5,328 nt of DNA from Kiloniellales bacterium (GTDB lineage: Bacteria > Pseudomonadota > Alphaproteobacteria > Kiloniellales > JAKSDN01). The stretch covers positions 1 through 5,328 of the forward strand of contig JAKSDN010001477.1 of assembly GCA_022360075.1 (NCBI GenBank), given 5' to 3'. Every line of letters starts with the position of its first letter. The stretch's first letter is position 1. The translations under genes and the position numbers were made by a program. This document shows positions 141-5,328 of this stretch, piece by piece. The notes beneath the pieces are model-generated. The model searched no databases and was not told where the DNA came from. It saw only the letters and a program-made list of their open reading frames with translations.

Positions 141-180
141 GCGGGCGATTGTTTCGGCCATCGGCCCGCTTGGTTTGTTT
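140..180 (+). terminator. Likely Rho-independent terminator of the response regulator gene
   Basis: A GC-rich stem begins at the last base of the stop codon. AGCGGGC (140-146) pairs perfectly with GCCCGCT (164-170). The stem extends by GAT (147-149) with ATC (160-162) if G163 is bulged, leaving a loop of about ten bases. It is followed at once by TTGGTTTGTTT, in which 8 of 11 bases are T (170-180). Position, stem and T-rich tail fit an intrinsic terminator reading left to right. The tract is interrupted by G, so efficiency may be moderate. Confidence 0.65.
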
Positions 181-333
181 GGTCCGCTTCGCGGACGCCC
201 CCCACCCTAACCCTCCCCCTCAAGGGGGGAGGGGATTTGCTCGCCGCTGCAATGGCTTAGACACCTCCCCCCTTGAGGGGGAGGTCGGCGCGAAGCGCCG
301 GGTGGGGGGCGTCCGCGGAGCGGACCAAGCAAA
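174..333. repeat. Large nested palindromic intergenic repeat (REP/BIME-like)
   Basis: This 160-bp stretch is built as an imperfect palindrome. The outer arms 174-206 and 301-333 are reverse complements at 31 of 33 positions; the core 26 bp, 181-206 against 301-326, has one mismatch. Inner arms 212-232 and 264-284 are exact 21-bp reverse complements, and each is itself a small hairpin of a C-run and a G-run around a CTCAAG or CTTGAG centre. A further perfect 6-bp stem with a GAA loop (CGGCGC / GCGCCG, 286-300) sits only on the right side. The C-run/G-run boxes and the GGTGGGGGGCG edge resemble repeats I know from memory in alphaproteobacterial intergenic regions. It lies between two convergent genes, so it could stop transcription from either side, but it carries no protein. 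The only open frame across it is repeat sequence and is not a gene. Confidence 0.8.
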
Positions 334-372
334 GCGATCAAGCCTGCCTTCGCCCGGAAAATGGTGACGCCA

Positions 373-2313
373 TCAAGCATCCAGTGCGTTACGTACCATC
401 CGGGCGAGGTCGTCCTTCCGGAACGGCTTTCTGACGAGCTGGAAATCGCGCGTCGGCTCGGCGAGCCGCTCCAGCGTCGCCTGGGCGTAGCCGGAGGTGT
501 ACAGCACCTTGAGCGCGGGCCGCTGTCTCGTCGCTTCTTCCGCCAGACGTATGCCGTTCATGCCGCCGGGCAGTACGAGATCGGTGAACAGGAGATCGAC
601 CGCCGGACCGCTCTCCAGGAAGCGAAGGGCAGCACGGGCATTGGCGGCCTCCGTGACGTCGTAGCCCAGCCGCCTGAGGATCTTGCTCGCCAGCTTGCGG
701 ACTTCGGGCTTGTCCTCGACCACGAGGATCCGCTCGCCGTTGCCGTTGGAATGCGCGGAAGGCGGCGGCTTGTCCGCGGGTGCAAGAGGATACCCCTTCG
801 CCCTGGGCAGGAGAAGCGCGACCGTCGTGCCCCCGCCCGGCTCGCTGTCGATCTGAAGATGGCCCTCGGACTGCATGACGAAGCCATAGACCATGCTGAG
901 CCCCAGCCCGCTGCCGTGACCGATTTCCTTGGTGGTGAAGAAGGGATGGATCGCACGCTCGACCACGTCCGGCGCCATACCTTCGCCGCTGTCGGTGACG
1001 CTGATCTTGACATACTGTCCCGGCGCGATACCTCCGTTTCTCCATGACGCTCCCACAGAGACCTCGGCGTTCGCCGTCTCGATGGTCAAGCGGCCGCCCT
1101 CCGGCATGGCATCGCGCGCGTTGATCGCCAGGTTGAGCAGGCTGGTCTCGAGCTGGTTGGGATCGATCTCGATCGACCAGAGCCCGTCGCTCCGCCGGTG
1201 CTCCACCTCGATCGTCTCGCCCAAGGCACGCTCCAGCAGGCGCGACATACCGGCGATCAACTTGCCGGCGTCGGTCGGCTGCGGGTGCAGCGTCTGGCGC
1301 CGGCCGAAGGCGAGCAGCCGGTGGGTCAGCTCCACGCCGCTGCGCGCGGACTCCAGAGCGTCCTCGATCAGTTCGCGCAGAGGCGATTCGGCTGCCAGCT
1401 CCTCCTCGACGAGATCGAGATTGCCGAGGATGACCGCCAGGAGATTGTTGAAATCATGGGCAACGCCGCCGGTGAGCTGGCCGAGCGCCTCCATCTTCTG
1501 GCCTTGCCTCAATTGCTCTTCGGCACGCCGCCGCTCGGTCGTGTCCGTGCCGATCGTGCCGACGCCCATGGGCTGCCCGCTCTCGTCCAGAACGGGAAAC
1601 CAGGTGACGAGGACTTGCCTAGGCGGCTCGCCGTCGCGCTCGATCTCGACCTCCCGCTCGATCACCCGCCCCTTTTCGAGCACCTCGCTCTCGCGGGCGG
1701 CGTAGGTGCCGGCGAGCGCCGCGGGAAACGCGCCCAAGAGCGCCCGGGCGTCGTGCCGTGATCGCGCCAGGCCGTGCCATTCCTCGAACCGCTTGTTGAC
1801 CACCAGGTAGCGGCCGTCGAGGTCCTTCAGGGCGATGGCCGAGGGCGAGTTCTCCACGATCTTGCGTAGGCGCTCCTCGCTCCGTTCCAGCTCCGCGTTG
1901 CGCTCGCGCAGCTCGGCCTCGGCCTCTGCGTGAGCGCGCGCGAGCGCGATGCGCTCGAAGCTGCGTTCCAGCGTGGCCAGCAGGTCTTCGGTGTAGAAGG
2001 GCTTACAGAGATAGTCGTAGGCGCCCGACTGCAGCGCCTCGATCGCCGTCTCGGCCGAGGCGTAGGCGGTCATCATGACGCAAAGCAGGTCGGGTTGGCG
2101 GTGGCGGAACTCGCCGACGAGCCGAATGCCGCTGCCTTCACCAAGGCGAATGTCGACCAGCGCAAGCTGGGCGGCAAAGCCCTCGAGCGCCGTGCGGGCC
2201 TCGCTTTCGCTGTAGGCGCACTCGACCCGGTAGCCTTCCAGAGTCAGGAGGTTGGAGAGACTGTCGGCGAAGTCGCGGTCATCGTCGATCACCAAGACCC
2301 GGCGCTCCGGCAC
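373..2313 (-). CDS. Hybrid sensor histidine kinase with two receivers (REC-PAS-HisKA-HATPase-REC)
   Basis: This is a soluble cytoplasmic hybrid kinase of 646 residues from the GTG start used here. The N-terminal receiver (about 4-120) has the acid pocket DDD 10-12, phospho-acceptor D54 in LVDIRLG, T82 and K104 in CKPF. An Ala/Glu/Arg-rich coiled coil (about 123-150) leads to a PAS domain (about 150-262). The HisKA domain has H286 in GGVAHDFNNLL. The ATPase domain has the N box (N398 in LAINARDAM), G1 box DSGEGM (441-446), F box PFFTTK and G2 box GSGLGLSMVYG (about 467-477). After a Pro-rich linker comes a second receiver with ED 533-534, D578 in FTDLVLPGG, T606 and K629. All catalytic residues are present. 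It has no membrane segment and no DNA-binding output. It follows the transporter-kinase, which lacks a receiver, so the first receiver is a plausible acceptor from that protein. The start is uncertain: the frame stays open to an ATG at 2466, which would overlap the upstream gene by about 94 bases. GTG 2313 puts the start just before the receiver, but its GGGAAG is directly adjacent and makes a poor ribosome site. Confidence 0.92.
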   Translation of the reverse strand: MPERRVLVIDDDRDFADSLSNLLTLEGYRVECAYSESEARTALEGFAAQLALVDIRLGEGSGIRLVGEFRHRQPDLLCVMMTAYASAETAIEALQSGAYDYLCKPFYTEDLLATLERSFERIALARAHAEAEAELRERNAELERSEERLRKIVENSPSAIALKDLDGRYLVVNKRFEEWHGLARSRHDARALLGAFPAALAGTYAARESEVLEKGRVIEREVEIERDGEPPRQVLVTWFPVLDESGQPMGVGTIGTDTTERRRAEEQLRQGQKMEALGQLTGGVAHDFNNLLAVILGNLDLVEEELAAESPLRELIEDALESARSGVELTHRLLAFGRRQTLHPQPTDAGKLIAGMSRLLERALGETIEVEHRRSDGLWSIEIDPNQLETSLLNLAINARDAMPEGGRLTIETANAEVSVGASWRNGGIAPGQYVKISVTDSGEGMAPDVVERAIHPFFTTKEIGHGSGLGLSMVYGFVMQSEGHLQIDSEPGGGTTVALLLPRAKGYPLAPADKPPPSAHSNGNGERILVVEDKPEVRKLASKILRRLGYDVTEAANARAALRFLESGPAVDLLFTDLVLPGGMNGIRLAEEATRQRPALKVLYTSGYAQATLERLAEPTRDFQLVRKPFRKDDLARMVRNALDA

Positions 2314-2372: not shown

Positions 2373-5060
2373 TTACCCCATGGCATGACCTCCGGTGCGC
2401 GGCACGGCAGAGGCGCCATCGGAGGCGACCGGCAGCGAGATGGTCACGGTCGTGCCGCGACCCCATTCGCTCTTGACCTCGATCGCGCCTTCGTGCCGCT
2501 CGACGATCCGCTTGACGAGCGGCATGCCCAGGCCGATGCCAAAGGCCTTCGTGCTGAACAGCGGCCGGAAGATCTTGTCGCCGATGTCGGGACGAATGCC
2601 GGGCCCGTTGTCGGAGACCTGCAGCTCGAAATGATCGTCGACGATCCGCGTCGCGATGCCAAGCTCGCCCGGCCGGGCCGGCTCATCATCCCGCTGCTCG
2701 ACGGCTTGTTGGGCATTCTGAAGGACGTTCACGAAGGCCAGATGCAGCTTCTCGCTGTCGATCAGAACGGTCGCCCTGGACCGCAGATCGGTCTTGAGGC
2801 TCACGCCGTCCGAAAGCCTCTGCTCGGCGAGCTGCGCGGCGACCCAGGCGTCCATCTCGACCGGTCGGACCACGATCTCCTTGTCGCGCGAGAAGTCCAA
2901 CAGGTCCTCGATGATATGGACGCAGCGCCAGATGCTGCGCTGCATGCGGTCCAGCTCGTCGCGGATCGCCTGTCCGGAGCCGTTGAGACGCTTCTGCAGA
3001 ACGGCGGCCGAGGAGTTCAGCGTGCCCAGCGGATTGCGCAGCTCGTGACTGACCATCGCCGTCAGCTCGCCGATCGTCGCCAGCCGTTCGCGCTGCATCA
3101 GCTCCTGCCGGGTCTCGCTGAGGGCTTCGAGCGAGGCCACCAGCTCGCGCTCGGCGAGCTCGCGGCTTTCGTGGGCGAGCACGATCCACCAGGCACCCAT
3201 GCCGATCAGGATCAAGGAGGCCAGGTAGACCCGGAAGAGCAGCGCGCCGCTCTCCGCGCTCACCGCCGGCGGGTCGAGGTCGATCATGCGGTAAGTGAGC
3301 AGGAACACGGCGGCGGTGACCACGGCCAGGGCCAGGAAAACGCCGAGGAACTTGGCCAGGCGCTGCACCAGGTGCGGCGGCATGCTGCGCTGAAAGCCGG
3401 GTTCCGCGACGCCGGCCTCCGGAACTTCGTCGTGAGCCTGGGGCAGCTTGCAGGAATCGTGGCAGTGGGCGTCCAGGCTGCAGCAGAGCGAGCAGATCGG
3501 TCCCTCGTAGAAGGGGCAGTAGGCCATGTCCTGCGGCTCGTAGCGATAGGTGCAGATGCTGCACTGCACGGTGTCCTGTGCCTTGGCCGCCGGCGCCAGG
3601 TCGTCCTCCCGCGCGATGTAGTAGGCGCCCTTGGTGGCGATGCCGATCAGGATGGCCATGAAGAAGGCCGTGCCCAGGGAGAGCGCCGCGGCGTAGGCCT
3701 CGGCGGCCTCGCCCAGCACGCCGCCGACCGCGGCCAGCGAGATAATGGAGGCCAAGGCCATCGCGCCGCAGCCGACCGGGTTGATGTCATGGAGATGGGC
3801 ACGCTTGAACTCGATGAAGGGCGGGCTGATGCCGAGCGGCTTGAGCACCACCAAATCGGCGAAGATGGCACCGATCCAGGCGATCGCCACGATCGAGTAG
3901 ACGGCGAGCACGGTCTGCAGGGTCTCGAAGATGCCGAGCAGCATCAGCAGCAGCGAGATCAGGATGTTGAAGACCAGCCAGACGACGCGGCCCGGGTGGT
4001 AGTGGGTCACCCGCGAATAGAAGTTCGACCAGGCGAGAGAGCCCGCGTAGGCATTGGTCACGTTGATCTTGACCTGGGAGATCAGCACGAAGATCGTCGC
4101 CGCCGTCAGCACGATCCAGGCATCGTCGACGATGAAGCCGTAGGCCTGTATGTACATGTGGATCGGCTCGACCGCGTCGATGTAGTCGACGCCGCTGCCC
4201 ACGGCCAGCACCGCGAGCAGGCTGCCGGCCAGGATCTTCAGGCCGCCGATCGAGATCCATCCCGGGCCGGCGGAGATCACCGCCGCCCACCAGCGCCAGC
4301 GGTTGTCCCGCGACTTGTCCGGCATGAAGCGCAGGTAGTCGACCTGCTCGCCGATCTGGACGACGAGAGAGAAAAGAACGCCGGTCGCCGCGCCGAACTG
4401 CAGGTAGTTGAAGCCGGAGGCCGTGCCGTCGATGCCGGCGAACTGCACCCAGTCCGACAGAACCTCCGGCTGCTTGTAGAAAATGAAGAAGAAAGGCGCG
4501 AGCAGCATCACGACCCAGATCGGCTGGGTCACGAGCTGCAGCCGGCTGATCAGGGTCACGCCGAGGAAGGTGATGGGAATGATGACGATGGAGGAAAGGA
4601 TGTAGCCGAACACGATCGGCAGGCGGAAATAGATCTCCAGGGCCTGGGCCATGATCGCGGCCTCGAGGGCGAAGAAGATGAAGGTGAAGCCCGCGTAGAT
4701 CAGCGAAGTGATGGTCGAGCCGATGTAGCCGAAGCCCGCGCCGCGGGTCAGCAGATCCATGTCGATGCTGTGCTTGCTCGAATAGTAGGCGATCGGCAGG
4801 CTGGTGACGAAGACGATCAGGCAGACCGCGATGATCGCGGGGAAGGCGTTACTGAAGCCGTAGGTGAGCGTGATCGCGCCGCCGATCGCTTCCAGGGCGA
4901 GGAAGGAGATCCCGCCGAGCGCCGTGTTGGTGATCGTGAAGGTCGGCCACTTTCGAAAGGAGCGCGCCGTATAGCGGAGCGCGTAGTCCTCCAGGGTCTC
5001 GTTGGCGATCCAGGCCTGGTACGAGCGCCGCGGCCGTACCGTCTCCGTCGTGATGCTCAT
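2373..5060 (-). CDS. NCS1-like transporter fused to a Cys-rich link and a sensor histidine kinase
   Basis: This 895-residue membrane protein has four parts. Residues about 45-478 form a 12-helix permease that resembles the NCS1 purine/cytosine permease family. Supporting segments are the NTALGGISFLALEAIGG first helix, QIGEQVDYLRFMP after helix 6 and NVTNAYAGSLAWSN at helix 8. Residues 500-537 hold eight cysteines (500, 503, 515, 523, 526, 527, 533, 537) with H532 and H534, probably a metal site on the cytoplasmic side. Two more helices follow (about 569-590 and 607-630) with a short loop between them, then a coiled coil. The kinase core has H672 in SHELRNPLG, N782 in VLQNAQQAV, DNGPGI (817-822), F box LFSTK and G2 box GIGLGM. 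There is no PAS domain or receiver. The protein probably couples solute binding or transport to autophosphorylation; the substrate is not known. ATG 5060 is chosen because the family-like sequence starts there; only a weak GGA lies six bases upstream. A TTG at 5132 would add 24 residues with no family character. It is probably co-transcribed with the hybrid kinase downstream. Confidence 0.93.
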   Translation of the reverse strand: MSITTETVRPRRSYQAWIANETLEDYALRYTARSFRKWPTFTITNTALGGISFLALEAIGGAITLTYGFSNAFPAIIAVCLIVFVTSLPIAYYSSKHSIDMDLLTRGAGFGYIGSTITSLIYAGFTFIFFALEAAIMAQALEIYFRLPIVFGYILSSIVIIPITFLGVTLISRLQLVTQPIWVVMLLAPFFFIFYKQPEVLSDWVQFAGIDGTASGFNYLQFGAATGVLFSLVVQIGEQVDYLRFMPDKSRDNRWRWWAAVISAGPGWISIGGLKILAGSLLAVLAVGSGVDYIDAVEPIHMYIQAYGFIVDDAWIVLTAATIFVLISQVKINVTNAYAGSLAWSNFYSRVTHYHPGRVVWLVFNILISLLLMLLGIFETLQTVLAVYSIVAIAWIGAIFADLVVLKPLGISPPFIEFKRAHLHDINPVGCGAMALASIISLAAVGGVLGEAAEAYAAALSLGTAFFMAILIGIATKGAYYIAREDDLAPAAKAQDTVQCSICTYRYEPQDMAYCPFYEGPICSLCCSLDAHCHDSCKLPQAHDEVPEAGVAEPGFQRSMPPHLVQRLAKFLGVFLALAVVTAAVFLLTYRMIDLDPPAVSAESGALLFRVYLASLILIGMGAWWIVLAHESRELAERELVASLEALSETRQELMQRERLATIGELTAMVSHELRNPLGTLNSSAAVLQKRLNGSGQAIRDELDRMQRSIWRCVHIIEDLLDFSRDKEIVVRPVEMDAWVAAQLAEQRLSDGVSLKTDLRSRATVLIDSEKLHLAFVNVLQNAQQAVEQRDDEPARPGELGIATRIVDDHFELQVSDNGPGIRPDIGDKIFRPLFSTKAFGIGLGMPLVKRIVERHEGAIEVKSEWGRGTTVTISLPVASDGASAVPRTGGHAMG

Positions 5061-5161
5061 GGCCGGTCCGCTGCCCCAGCTCAGCGCGTCAAGTCCCGTC
5101 GAAGACTGCCACGTGCCACTTCGGCTGTACAACGCCCCTGCAAGGCGTGGCGGGCTCGGCG
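5061..5161 (-). promoter_or_regulatory. Leader region of the transporter-kinase gene; no defined promoter
   Basis: This stretch lies between the start codon and the palindromic element upstream. Any promoter for the two-kinase unit should lie here or within the element. I see no convincing -35/-10 pair. TTGACG occurs on the minus strand about 35 bases before the start codon, but it has no AT-rich -10 box at a suitable distance. The ribosome site is weak. The label marks the likely location only. Confidence 0.3.
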
Positions 5162-5296
5162 GCTAGTGGTTCAATTCCGACACTTGAGTCCGATGAAATT
5201 GGATCAAGTGTCGACCAGAATTGAACCCAATCAAAGATCCACCTAGTGGGACGGCCCGACGTTCCGGGATCGGAATGTCGGAGTCGAACCACTAGC
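5162..5296. repeat. Pair of related palindromes with CTAGTGG ends (MITE/REP-like element)
   Basis: The first palindrome pairs GGTTCAATTC (5168-5177) and CGACACTTGA (5178-5187) with TCAAGTGTCG (5204-5213) and GAATTGAACC (5218-5227). All 20 pairs are perfect, with a 4-base ACCA insertion in the right arm and a 16-base centre. The second palindrome runs from CTAGTGG (5243-5249) to CCACTAG (5289-5295). Its inner arms 5257-5266 and 5271-5280 match at 9 of 10 positions around a GGAT loop. The outermost ends, 5162-5184 and 5274-5296, are also reverse complements at 20 of 23 positions, so the whole 135 bp has terminal inverted repeats. I see no target-site duplication beside it. It sits upstream of the transporter-kinase gene and could affect its transcription. 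It does not fold as a tRNA despite a GGTTCAATTCC string. The last 32 bases of the window show nothing. Confidence 0.65.
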
Positions 5297-5328
5297 ATCC
5301 GGCACGAAACGCGTGATCAGCGTCTCGC

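What the first reader, a model, noticed from the sequence alone, without database searches (positions are those of the whole stretch)
2373..5060. NCS1-like permease fused to a histidine kinase: a transporter as sensor
The sequence shows a full-length 12-helix permease, two extra helices and a complete HisKA/HATPase core in one uninterrupted frame. Fusions of SLC5 symporters to kinases (CbrA, CrbS) are established. From memory, the NCS1-type version is little studied and I know of no characterised member. The transporter half looks intact rather than eroded, so it may both move and sense its ligand. The natural guess is a nucleobase, hydantoin or related nitrogen compound, but residue identity alone does not fix the substrate.
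Basis: partly seen in the sequence, partly recalled or inferred. Interest (0 to 1): 0.72.

Follow-up and report, generated by a model that had tools for sequence, protein, structure and literature searches.

The report
Permease-kinase fusion beside amide-use genes
A bacterial protein that joins a transporter-like membrane part to a signalling enzyme is real and widespread, and it usually travels with genes for using small amides such as formamide or urea, so it is probably the switch that senses them.

Summary

New: the likely signal. Of 40 genomes with strong formamidase FmdA, 39 carry the fusion (Fisher p 1.4e-41); 39 of 43 FmdA genes lie within 15 kb of it. Neighbours are urtABCDE with or without FmdA or, in the window's clade (6 of 6 contigs long enough), FmdA, AmiS/UreI and FmdB beyond a convergent OmpR regulator whose end lies at the window edge. 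Short-chain amides or urea therefore replace the nucleobase/hydantoin guess. Core residues E57, E133, E238 and K331 are invariant, and absent from 10 canonical NCS1 proteins. S. meliloti SMb20609, published as a kinase of unknown function, is a member. Ligand, transport and phosphorylation are untested.

The parts
2373..5060 (-). Permease-histidine kinase fusion, 895 aa, ATG start
3591..5060 (-). Residues 1-490: NCS1-like permease, 12 transmembrane helices
   Evidence: hhalign, model, structure match
3450..3563 (-). Residues 500-537: module of eight conserved cysteines (CxxC-x11-C-x7-CxxCC-x5-C-x3-C); metal binding is inferred, fold not identified
   Evidence: motif in 121 of 121 proteins held, query included, and in 96 of 96 locus proteins; Foldseek best E 0.36
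3174..3350 (-). Residues 571-629: two extra transmembrane helices before the kinase
   Evidence: hydropathy, model
2886..3071 (-). Residues 664-725: HisKA dimerisation/phospho-acceptor domain, His672
   Evidence: Pfam; H672 invariant in 48 aligned sequences
2424..2759 (-). Residues 768-879: HATPase_c catalytic domain
   Evidence: Pfam
373..2313 (-). Second gene: REC-PAS-HisKA-HATPase-REC hybrid kinase. GTG at 2313 is a plausible start (my choice); the open frame reaches an ATG at 2466
   Evidence: Pfam; start; related gene at the same place in L001, L002, L003, L007, L009, L116, L117, with fewer domains in L002
3..140 (+). C-terminal end of a convergent OmpR-type response regulator, cut by the window edge
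   Evidence: 52-75% identical over 39-45 residues to the regulator at the same place in all seven clade loci searched; full-length copy in L007 is Response_reg + Trans_reg_C

Best explanation
It is the membrane sensor of a signalling pathway that switches on the use of small amides (formamide, acetamide) and/or urea as nitrogen source. The NCS1-like half most likely binds the amide or urea in its central cavity. The conformational change passes through the Cys8 module and the two extra helices to the HisKA/HATPase core. In the window's clade phosphate probably goes to the receiver-kinase partner encoded next to it and then to the convergent OmpR-type regulator, which activates FmdA, AmiS and FmdB. 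In the larger sister clade the gene continues into a receiver domain and a LuxR-type regulator controls urtABCDE, often with FmdA and FmdB. Shown: gene fusion, fold, conservation, linkage, co-occurrence. Inferred: ligand, direction of signalling, order of phosphotransfer, target promoters. I lean to a receptor that is not sodium coupled; whether it also transports is open.
For: Co-occurrence: of 398 Pseudomonadota genomes, 52 have the fusion and 40 a strong FmdA (E <= 1e-100); 39 have both, p 1.4e-41. Linkage: 39 of 43 strong FmdA genes lie within 15 kb. Of 57 fusion copies, 48 have FmdA, UrtA or AmiS in the stretch read, 3 more only UrtD/UrtE, 2 sit on short stretches and 4 have none. Three Tistrella-like genomes without adjacent amide genes still hold a strong FmdA elsewhere (G268, G041, G170). 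Window clade: 6 of 6 long-enough contigs have the convergent OmpR regulator, FmdA, AmiS and FmdB (two of the six are near-identical Stappia stretches); Pfam confirmed these in L007, and L002's FmdA passes NCBI's formamidase cut-off (743 against 500 bits). Cyanobacteria: 5 of 9 carriers also have FmdA against 6 of 137 others, p 9.8e-5, without adjacency. Partner: P0035 and P0046 fuse this permease to a tail 45-50% identical to the Pelagibius partner. Fold. [quoted passage not shown] CbrA uptake is not sodium stimulated (PMC7096432); [quoted passage not shown]
Against: I found no ligand-binding, phosphorylation or amide-response data for any member. The window itself holds no amide gene; the link rests on relatives. 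Four copies of the set (L162, L165, L166, L167), the Tistrella-like copies (L078, which is the record of L032, L079, L080) and L081 lack amide genes in the stretch read. Of the 20 alphaproteobacterial carriers, 6 have no strong FmdA. Nine of 9 cyanobacterial stretches and both Sorangium loci lack amide genes nearby, and the two Sorangium genomes lack PF03069 altogether. In Stappia another ABC transporter, an amidase and an amidohydrolase-family protein lie upstream as well. Genomes are related, so Fisher p overstates independence. Linkage shows shared function, not what is sensed.
Confidence: 0.66

Rival explanations
1. It regulates the same amide/urea genes but senses something else: nitrogen status, ammonium (the product), a metal or redox cue through the Cys8 module; the permease half is only a membrane scaffold.
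For: Cys8 module present in every protein checked. In S. meliloti the gene is itself controlled by the PHB regulator PhaR (PMC12542648, passages; identity of the gene), so other inputs exist.
Against: The permease residues E57, E133, K331, Q235 and E238 are as invariant as the cysteines, which a mere scaffold would not need.
Confidence: 0.2
2. It is a working transporter as well as a sensor (a transceptor like CbrA) and imports amide or urea.
For: The 12-helix fold is kept and conserved. CbrA transports histidine without sodium stimulation (PMC7096432, passages).
Against: Dedicated uptake genes (urtABCDE or AmiS) usually sit beside it. A lysine on a sodium-ligand position and the loss of at least one hydroxyl ligand argue against sodium coupling, though not against proton coupling (register uncertain).
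Confidence: 0.3
3. It senses a nucleobase, hydantoin or allantoin.
For: Nearest solved relatives are a cytosine and a hydantoin transporter. In Stappia an amidohydrolase-family enzyme lies upstream (its best model is a general amidohydrolase subfamily, below cut-off).
Against: W117, Q121, W220 and N318 of Mhp1 align with F129, E133, L229 and G340. The product names in the six annotated loci include no hydantoinase, allantoinase or cytosine deaminase; amide/urea genes dominate.
Confidence: 0.07
4. The fusion is an assembly artefact or a rare accident.
For: None found.
Against: Kinase-length frames in all 57 Pseudomonadota and 9 cyanobacterial matches at E <= 1e-60 and in plasmid records titled complete.
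Confidence: 0.01

Closest known systems
SLC5/STAC histidine kinases (CbrA, CrbS, RpuS)
   Same: Transporter fused N-terminally to a histidine kinase that controls use of a nutrient; some are hybrids with a LuxR-type regulator (PMC9100948, passages)
   Different: The permease is NCS1-like, not SLC5 (PF00474 silent at these loci in 8 genomes, hhalign 0.6%); no STAC match; a Cys8 module and two further helices stand between permease and kinase
Ks-Amt5, the Amt-histidine kinase of Kuenenia
   Same: An uptake transporter repurposed as sensor of a small nitrogen compound and coupled to a kinase (PMC5764959, passages)
   Different: Unrelated transporter family; no ammonium-transporter match in the window protein
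NCS1 transporters CodB and Mhp1
   Same: Fold over 385-429 aligned residues; G111, G114, D241, R244 and N336 invariant in the 27-row alignment of fusions and NCS1 proteins
   Different: Fused kinase; invariant E57, E133, K331; 3-residue EQV insertion in TM6; substrate and sodium positions altered
fmdCABDEF amide/urea gene cluster of Methylophilus
   Same: Formamidase and amide/urea uptake genes induced by formamide and urea (review PMC10781810, passages)
   Different: The review names only a putative positive regulator; I did not examine that locus for this fusion
SMb20609/SMb20610 of Sinorhizobium meliloti
   Same: Member of this family (52% identity over 508 permease columns) next to urtABCDE and a LuxR-type regulator
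   Different: Longer gene (about 1126 aa, subtype with LuxR partner); published as a histidine kinase of unknown function under PhaR control (PMC12542648, passages)

Membership tests
Sensor histidine kinases (HisKA type) | HisKA with phospho-acceptor His and HATPase_c with N and G boxes | tested here: met
   Pfam; H672, N778, N782, D817, G819, G821 invariant in 48 sequences
Sensor histidine kinases (HisKA type) | Autophosphorylation | not testable with these tools
   needs a bench assay
NCS1 transporters (PF02133) | Match over the curated PF02133 cut-off | tested here: not met
   No hit at E <= 0.1; PF02133 matches in 7 of 16 carrier genomes, none at a fusion locus
NCS1 transporters (PF02133) | Full-length profile similarity to NCS1 proteins | tested here: met
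   hhalign 99.4%, E 1.2e-21, 442 columns; CodB-like half of the set 98.8%, the other half 58.9%; SLC5 control 0.6%
NCS1 transporters (PF02133) | NCS1 fold above other LeuT-fold families | tested here: met
NCS1 transporters (PF02133) | Mhp1-type substrate residues and Na2 site | tested here: not met
   W117/Q121/W220/N318 fall on F129/E133/L229/G340; K331 falls on A309 (Mhp1 alignment) or T278 (CodB alignment). Of 10 control NCS1 proteins 5 differ at W117 and 6 at N318, so this is not decisive for the family
NCS1 transporters (PF02133) | Transport of a nucleobase-like substrate | not testable with these tools
   needs an uptake assay
SLC5/STAC kinases | SLC5 (SSF, PF00474) membrane domain | tested here: not met
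   (8 genomes, no match at a fusion locus); hhalign 0.6%
SLC5/STAC kinases | STAC domain | tested here: not met
   no STAC model among Pfam matches at E <= 0.1
Amt-histidine kinases | Ammonium transporter domain | tested here: not met
   no such model among Pfam matches at E <= 0.1
Known zinc-finger families (for the Cys8 module) | Recognised fold or profile | tested here: inconclusive
   no Pfam hit; Foldseek best E 0.36, PHD and RING fingers first (model pLDDT 72.5)

The most novel reading that the evidence does not exclude
A whole lineage of NCS1-fold proteins stopped being sodium-driven transporters and became dedicated receptors for small amides or urea. An invariant lysine stands where sodium bound, invariant glutamates line the core, and the signal passes through a Cys8 metal module that matches no described family to a kinase. 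It would be the main amide/urea sensor of Pseudomonadota, older than its own gene neighbourhood because it also tracks formamidase in cyanobacteria.
Probability: 0.35. Interest if true: 0.78.

Novelty: new variant of a known kind. Interest (0 to 1): 0.64.

Why it matters
It gives a large transporter-kinase family, for which I found no functional study, a concrete, testable ligand class and regulon; adds a third transporter family to the sensor fusions I know to be characterised (SLC5 and Amt); and offers a natural comparison between transporter and receptor built on the same fold as CodB and Mhp1. It would also supply a ligand-sensing regulator for formamidase/amide-uptake clusters: one recent paper names only fmdB as regulator and notes that amiC and amiR are missing at the Pseudomonas veronii cluster (PMC13209695, passages), another draws an unnamed hybrid kinase beside such a cluster (PMC13296017, passages). 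I did not examine the sequence of either locus.

Tried and rejected
Nucleobase/hydantoin ligand: set aside on neighbourhood evidence. SLC5 assignment: rejected. Free-standing permease relatives: with the permease half as query, one distant candidate (G146, 24% identity, 600-aa frame, E 4e-9) among 289 genomes, against 20 fusions. Cys8 module as a known zinc finger: no significant match. RNA families at the gathering threshold and tRNAs in the window: none. Reading the changed Trp and Asn as proof of a receptor: withdrawn, because control NCS1 proteins of the same genomes also vary there. The register of K331 against the sodium site comes from sequence alignment only and differs by three residues between the Mhp1 and CodB alignments; no coordinates were at hand, and the model is weak there (pLDDT 66 over 331-340).

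Flawed steps and their repair: one search read minus-strand loci on the wrong strand, redone; held L008 out of frame, redone; one search translated the OmpR fragment in the wrong frame, redone. L095 and L099 were dropped from the NCS1 set because their stretches were short (15 of 17 used); L004 and L168 were left out of the tree, a quick tree with long branches. L032 and L078 are one record, as are L005 and L169. In one search one of 97 aligned rows differs at the cysteine columns, although the motif search finds all eight cysteines in 96 of 96 locus proteins.

Literature: ten searches listed no paper that I recognised as describing an NCS1-histidine kinase fusion; I saw titles and abstract starts of the rows listed. 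Only open-licence PubMed Central papers are held. Of the papers cited I read passages found by search terms, not whole texts.

Full report
What is there. The window's minus strand holds one frame from ATG at 5060 to the stop at 2373, 895 residues. Pfam sees only HisKA and HATPase_c. The AlphaFold model from 48 aligned sequences (mean pLDDT 71.2) shows twelve permease helices by my count, a small module at about 500-537, two more helices and the kinase core. The module carries eight cysteines; the pattern is present in all 121 proteins held from the homologue search, query included, and in all 96 proteins found in loci. Foldseek gives it no significant match (best E 0.36, PHD and RING fingers), so metal binding is inference from the cysteines. 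A second gene overlaps or directly follows: REC-PAS-HisKA-HATPase-REC, ending at 373. At the left edge, on the other strand, lie the last 45 residues of an OmpR-type regulator, 52-75% identical to the regulator at the same place in all seven clade loci searched.

Always a fusion? With the whole protein as query, 20 of 289 alphaproteobacterial genomes, 52 of 398 Pseudomonadota (57 matches) and 9 of 146 cyanobacteria match at E <= 1e-60, every match in a frame of 894 aa or more; only the best 2 to 6 candidates per genome were scored. With the permease half alone and E <= 1e-5, where all candidates shown were scored, the same 20 alphaproteobacterial fusions return plus one 24%-identical frame of 600 aa (G146).

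Binding-site residues. Through the HMMER alignment with Mhp1, W117, Q121, W220 and N318 fall on F129, E133, L229 and G340, and the sodium ligands A309, S312 and T313 on K331, V334 and T335. Through the alignment with CodB, W108 and F204 fall on F129 and L229, and T278 and T279 on K331 and I332: three residues out of register with the first, yet K331 meets a sodium-ligand position in both. (Mhp1 substrate residues from PMC4195764 and the CodB sites from PMC9379551, passages; the Mhp1 sodium ligands are recalled.) E57 and E133 are unchanged in 95 of 95 rows that cover them, E238 and K331 in 97 of 97. In 10 control NCS1 proteins these columns never hold E or K, and a three-residue insertion (EQV, 238-240) is absent. 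But the controls also vary at the W117 and N318 columns, so those changes alone do not show a receptor. The core is rewritten and then frozen, which fits one conserved function and one type of ligand; that is inference.

Neighbourhood. Annotated plasmid relatives at 42-46% identity came first: in 5 of 6 loci read, the fusion stands divergently near urtABCDE, in 3 of them with formamidase/acetamidase FmdA as well; Tistrella has none within 8 kb. In the class sample, 16 of 20 stretches hold UrtA and/or FmdA. In the phylum sample I read new stretches for 53 of 57 copies and had 4 already: 48 of 57 have FmdA, UrtA or AmiS, 3 more have UrtD/UrtE only (L125, L154, L156), 2 are short stretches (L136, L168), 4 have none (L162, L165, L166, L167). 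Labels are by tblastn against reference neighbours, with bit-score cut-offs set by me.

The window's own clade. L002, L003, L007, L009, L116 and L117 keep the window's order: fusion, receiver-kinase partner, convergent OmpR regulator; and beyond it FmdA, AmiS/UreI and FmdB, 6 of 6; L002 and L003 are near-identical Stappia stretches. Two further members, L001 and L004, end too early to tell. The partner's make-up varies: REC-PAS-HK-REC in the window, REC-GAF-PAS-HK-REC in L007, only REC and kinase in L002. Pfam confirmed the L007 neighbours (PF03069, PF02293, Zn_ribbon_8, Response_reg/Trans_reg_C); L002's FmdA passes NCBI's formamidase cut-off. L002 also has, upstream, a UrtB/LivH-like ABC transporter, an amidase and an amidohydrolase-family protein, all below family cut-offs in the rows shown. 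In the tree the window falls in a group of 14 (SH-aLRT 100) that holds all six of these rows.

Co-occurrence. A strong FmdA (PF03069, E <= 1e-100) occurs in 40 of the 398 genomes, and 39 of those 40 have the fusion; the exception G395 is a 2.1-Mb assembly. Table 39/13/1/345, Fisher p 1.4e-41. Of 43 strong FmdA genes 39 lie within 15 kb of a fusion; of the other four, two are on another contig of G392, whose fusion sits near a contig end, one is a second gene in G472 and one is that of G395. Of the 20 alphaproteobacterial carriers 14 have a strong FmdA, among them the three Tistrella-like genomes where it is not adjacent; 6 have none. In cyanobacteria, where the genes are not adjacent (0 of 9 stretches), 9 of 146 genomes have the fusion, 11 have FmdA and 5 both, p 9.8e-5. 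Genomes share ancestry, so these p-values overstate the case. Against the trend: both Sorangium genomes carry the fusion without any PF03069 match.

Pathway. P0035 and P0046 are single proteins that begin with this permease (P0035: 70% identical to the window over its first 690 residues) and continue with a tail matching the Pelagibius partner protein (50% and 45%), in place of the permease's own kinase core, to which P0035's tail is only 24% identical. Such natural fusions support a shared pathway. The proposed flow, permease-kinase to partner to OmpR regulator, is inference.

Known members. The promoter site that PMC12542648 lists for SMb20609 lies just upstream of the fusion gene of S. meliloti 1021, so SMb20609 is a member. 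That paper calls it a kinase of unknown function, shows PhaR binding to its promoter and higher protein levels without PhaR (passages). [quoted passage not shown] I did not check either locus for the fusion. JGI names several members 'signal transduction histidine kinase/purine-cytosine permease-like protein', so the domain pair had been noted by annotation. My searches listed no functional study.

Verdict. A real, large, conserved family; a new variant of the known kind 'transporter-fused sensor kinase', with a ligand class that can now be tested directly.

Noticed in passing
window 163-344: Palindromic repeat between the second gene and the OmpR regulator: 45-nt arms (84% complementary) enclosing a perfect 21-nt inverted pair; looks like a dispersed repeat or double terminator.
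   Followed up: partly
window 5157-5301: 26-nt inverted repeat arms (85% complementary) 93 nt apart, upstream of the fusion gene; could be a small mobile-element remnant or a regulator site.
   Followed up: no
P0035, P0038, P0046, P0047, P0049, P0052, P0063, P0064, P0067 (1141-1331 aa; 9 of 120 listed): Longer variants with PAS domains and mostly a receiver after the permease; compared with the partner gene for P0035 and P0046 only.
   Followed up: partly
L125, L138, L162, L164, L165, L166, L167: A separate subclade of 7; 4 have no amide genes nearby and 3 of the 7 (L138, L162, L165) are second copies in genomes that also hold an FmdA-linked copy, so possibly another ligand.
   Followed up: no
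L006, L008 (Sorangium); G005, G007: Fusion preceded by a small receiver-like protein and a separate kinase-like protein (by eye); these genomes have no PF03069 formamidase.
   Followed up: no
G473:C2:110656-113283 (L116): Match reported with one TGA inside; a frame of 899 aa is still given. Not examined.
   Followed up: no
L178 (S. meliloti pSymB), L033: The fusion lies between urtABCDE and dicarboxylate transport genes with dctD; published as PhaR-controlled SMb20609.
   Followed up: yes
window 2385-5246, plus strand: A 953-aa open frame antisense to the fusion gene, as expected in high-GC coding DNA.
   Followed up: no
L002:152-6724: ABC transporter (UrtB/LivH-like), amidase and amidohydrolase-family protein upstream of the Stappia fusion; perhaps a second amide-related uptake cluster.
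   Followed up: partly
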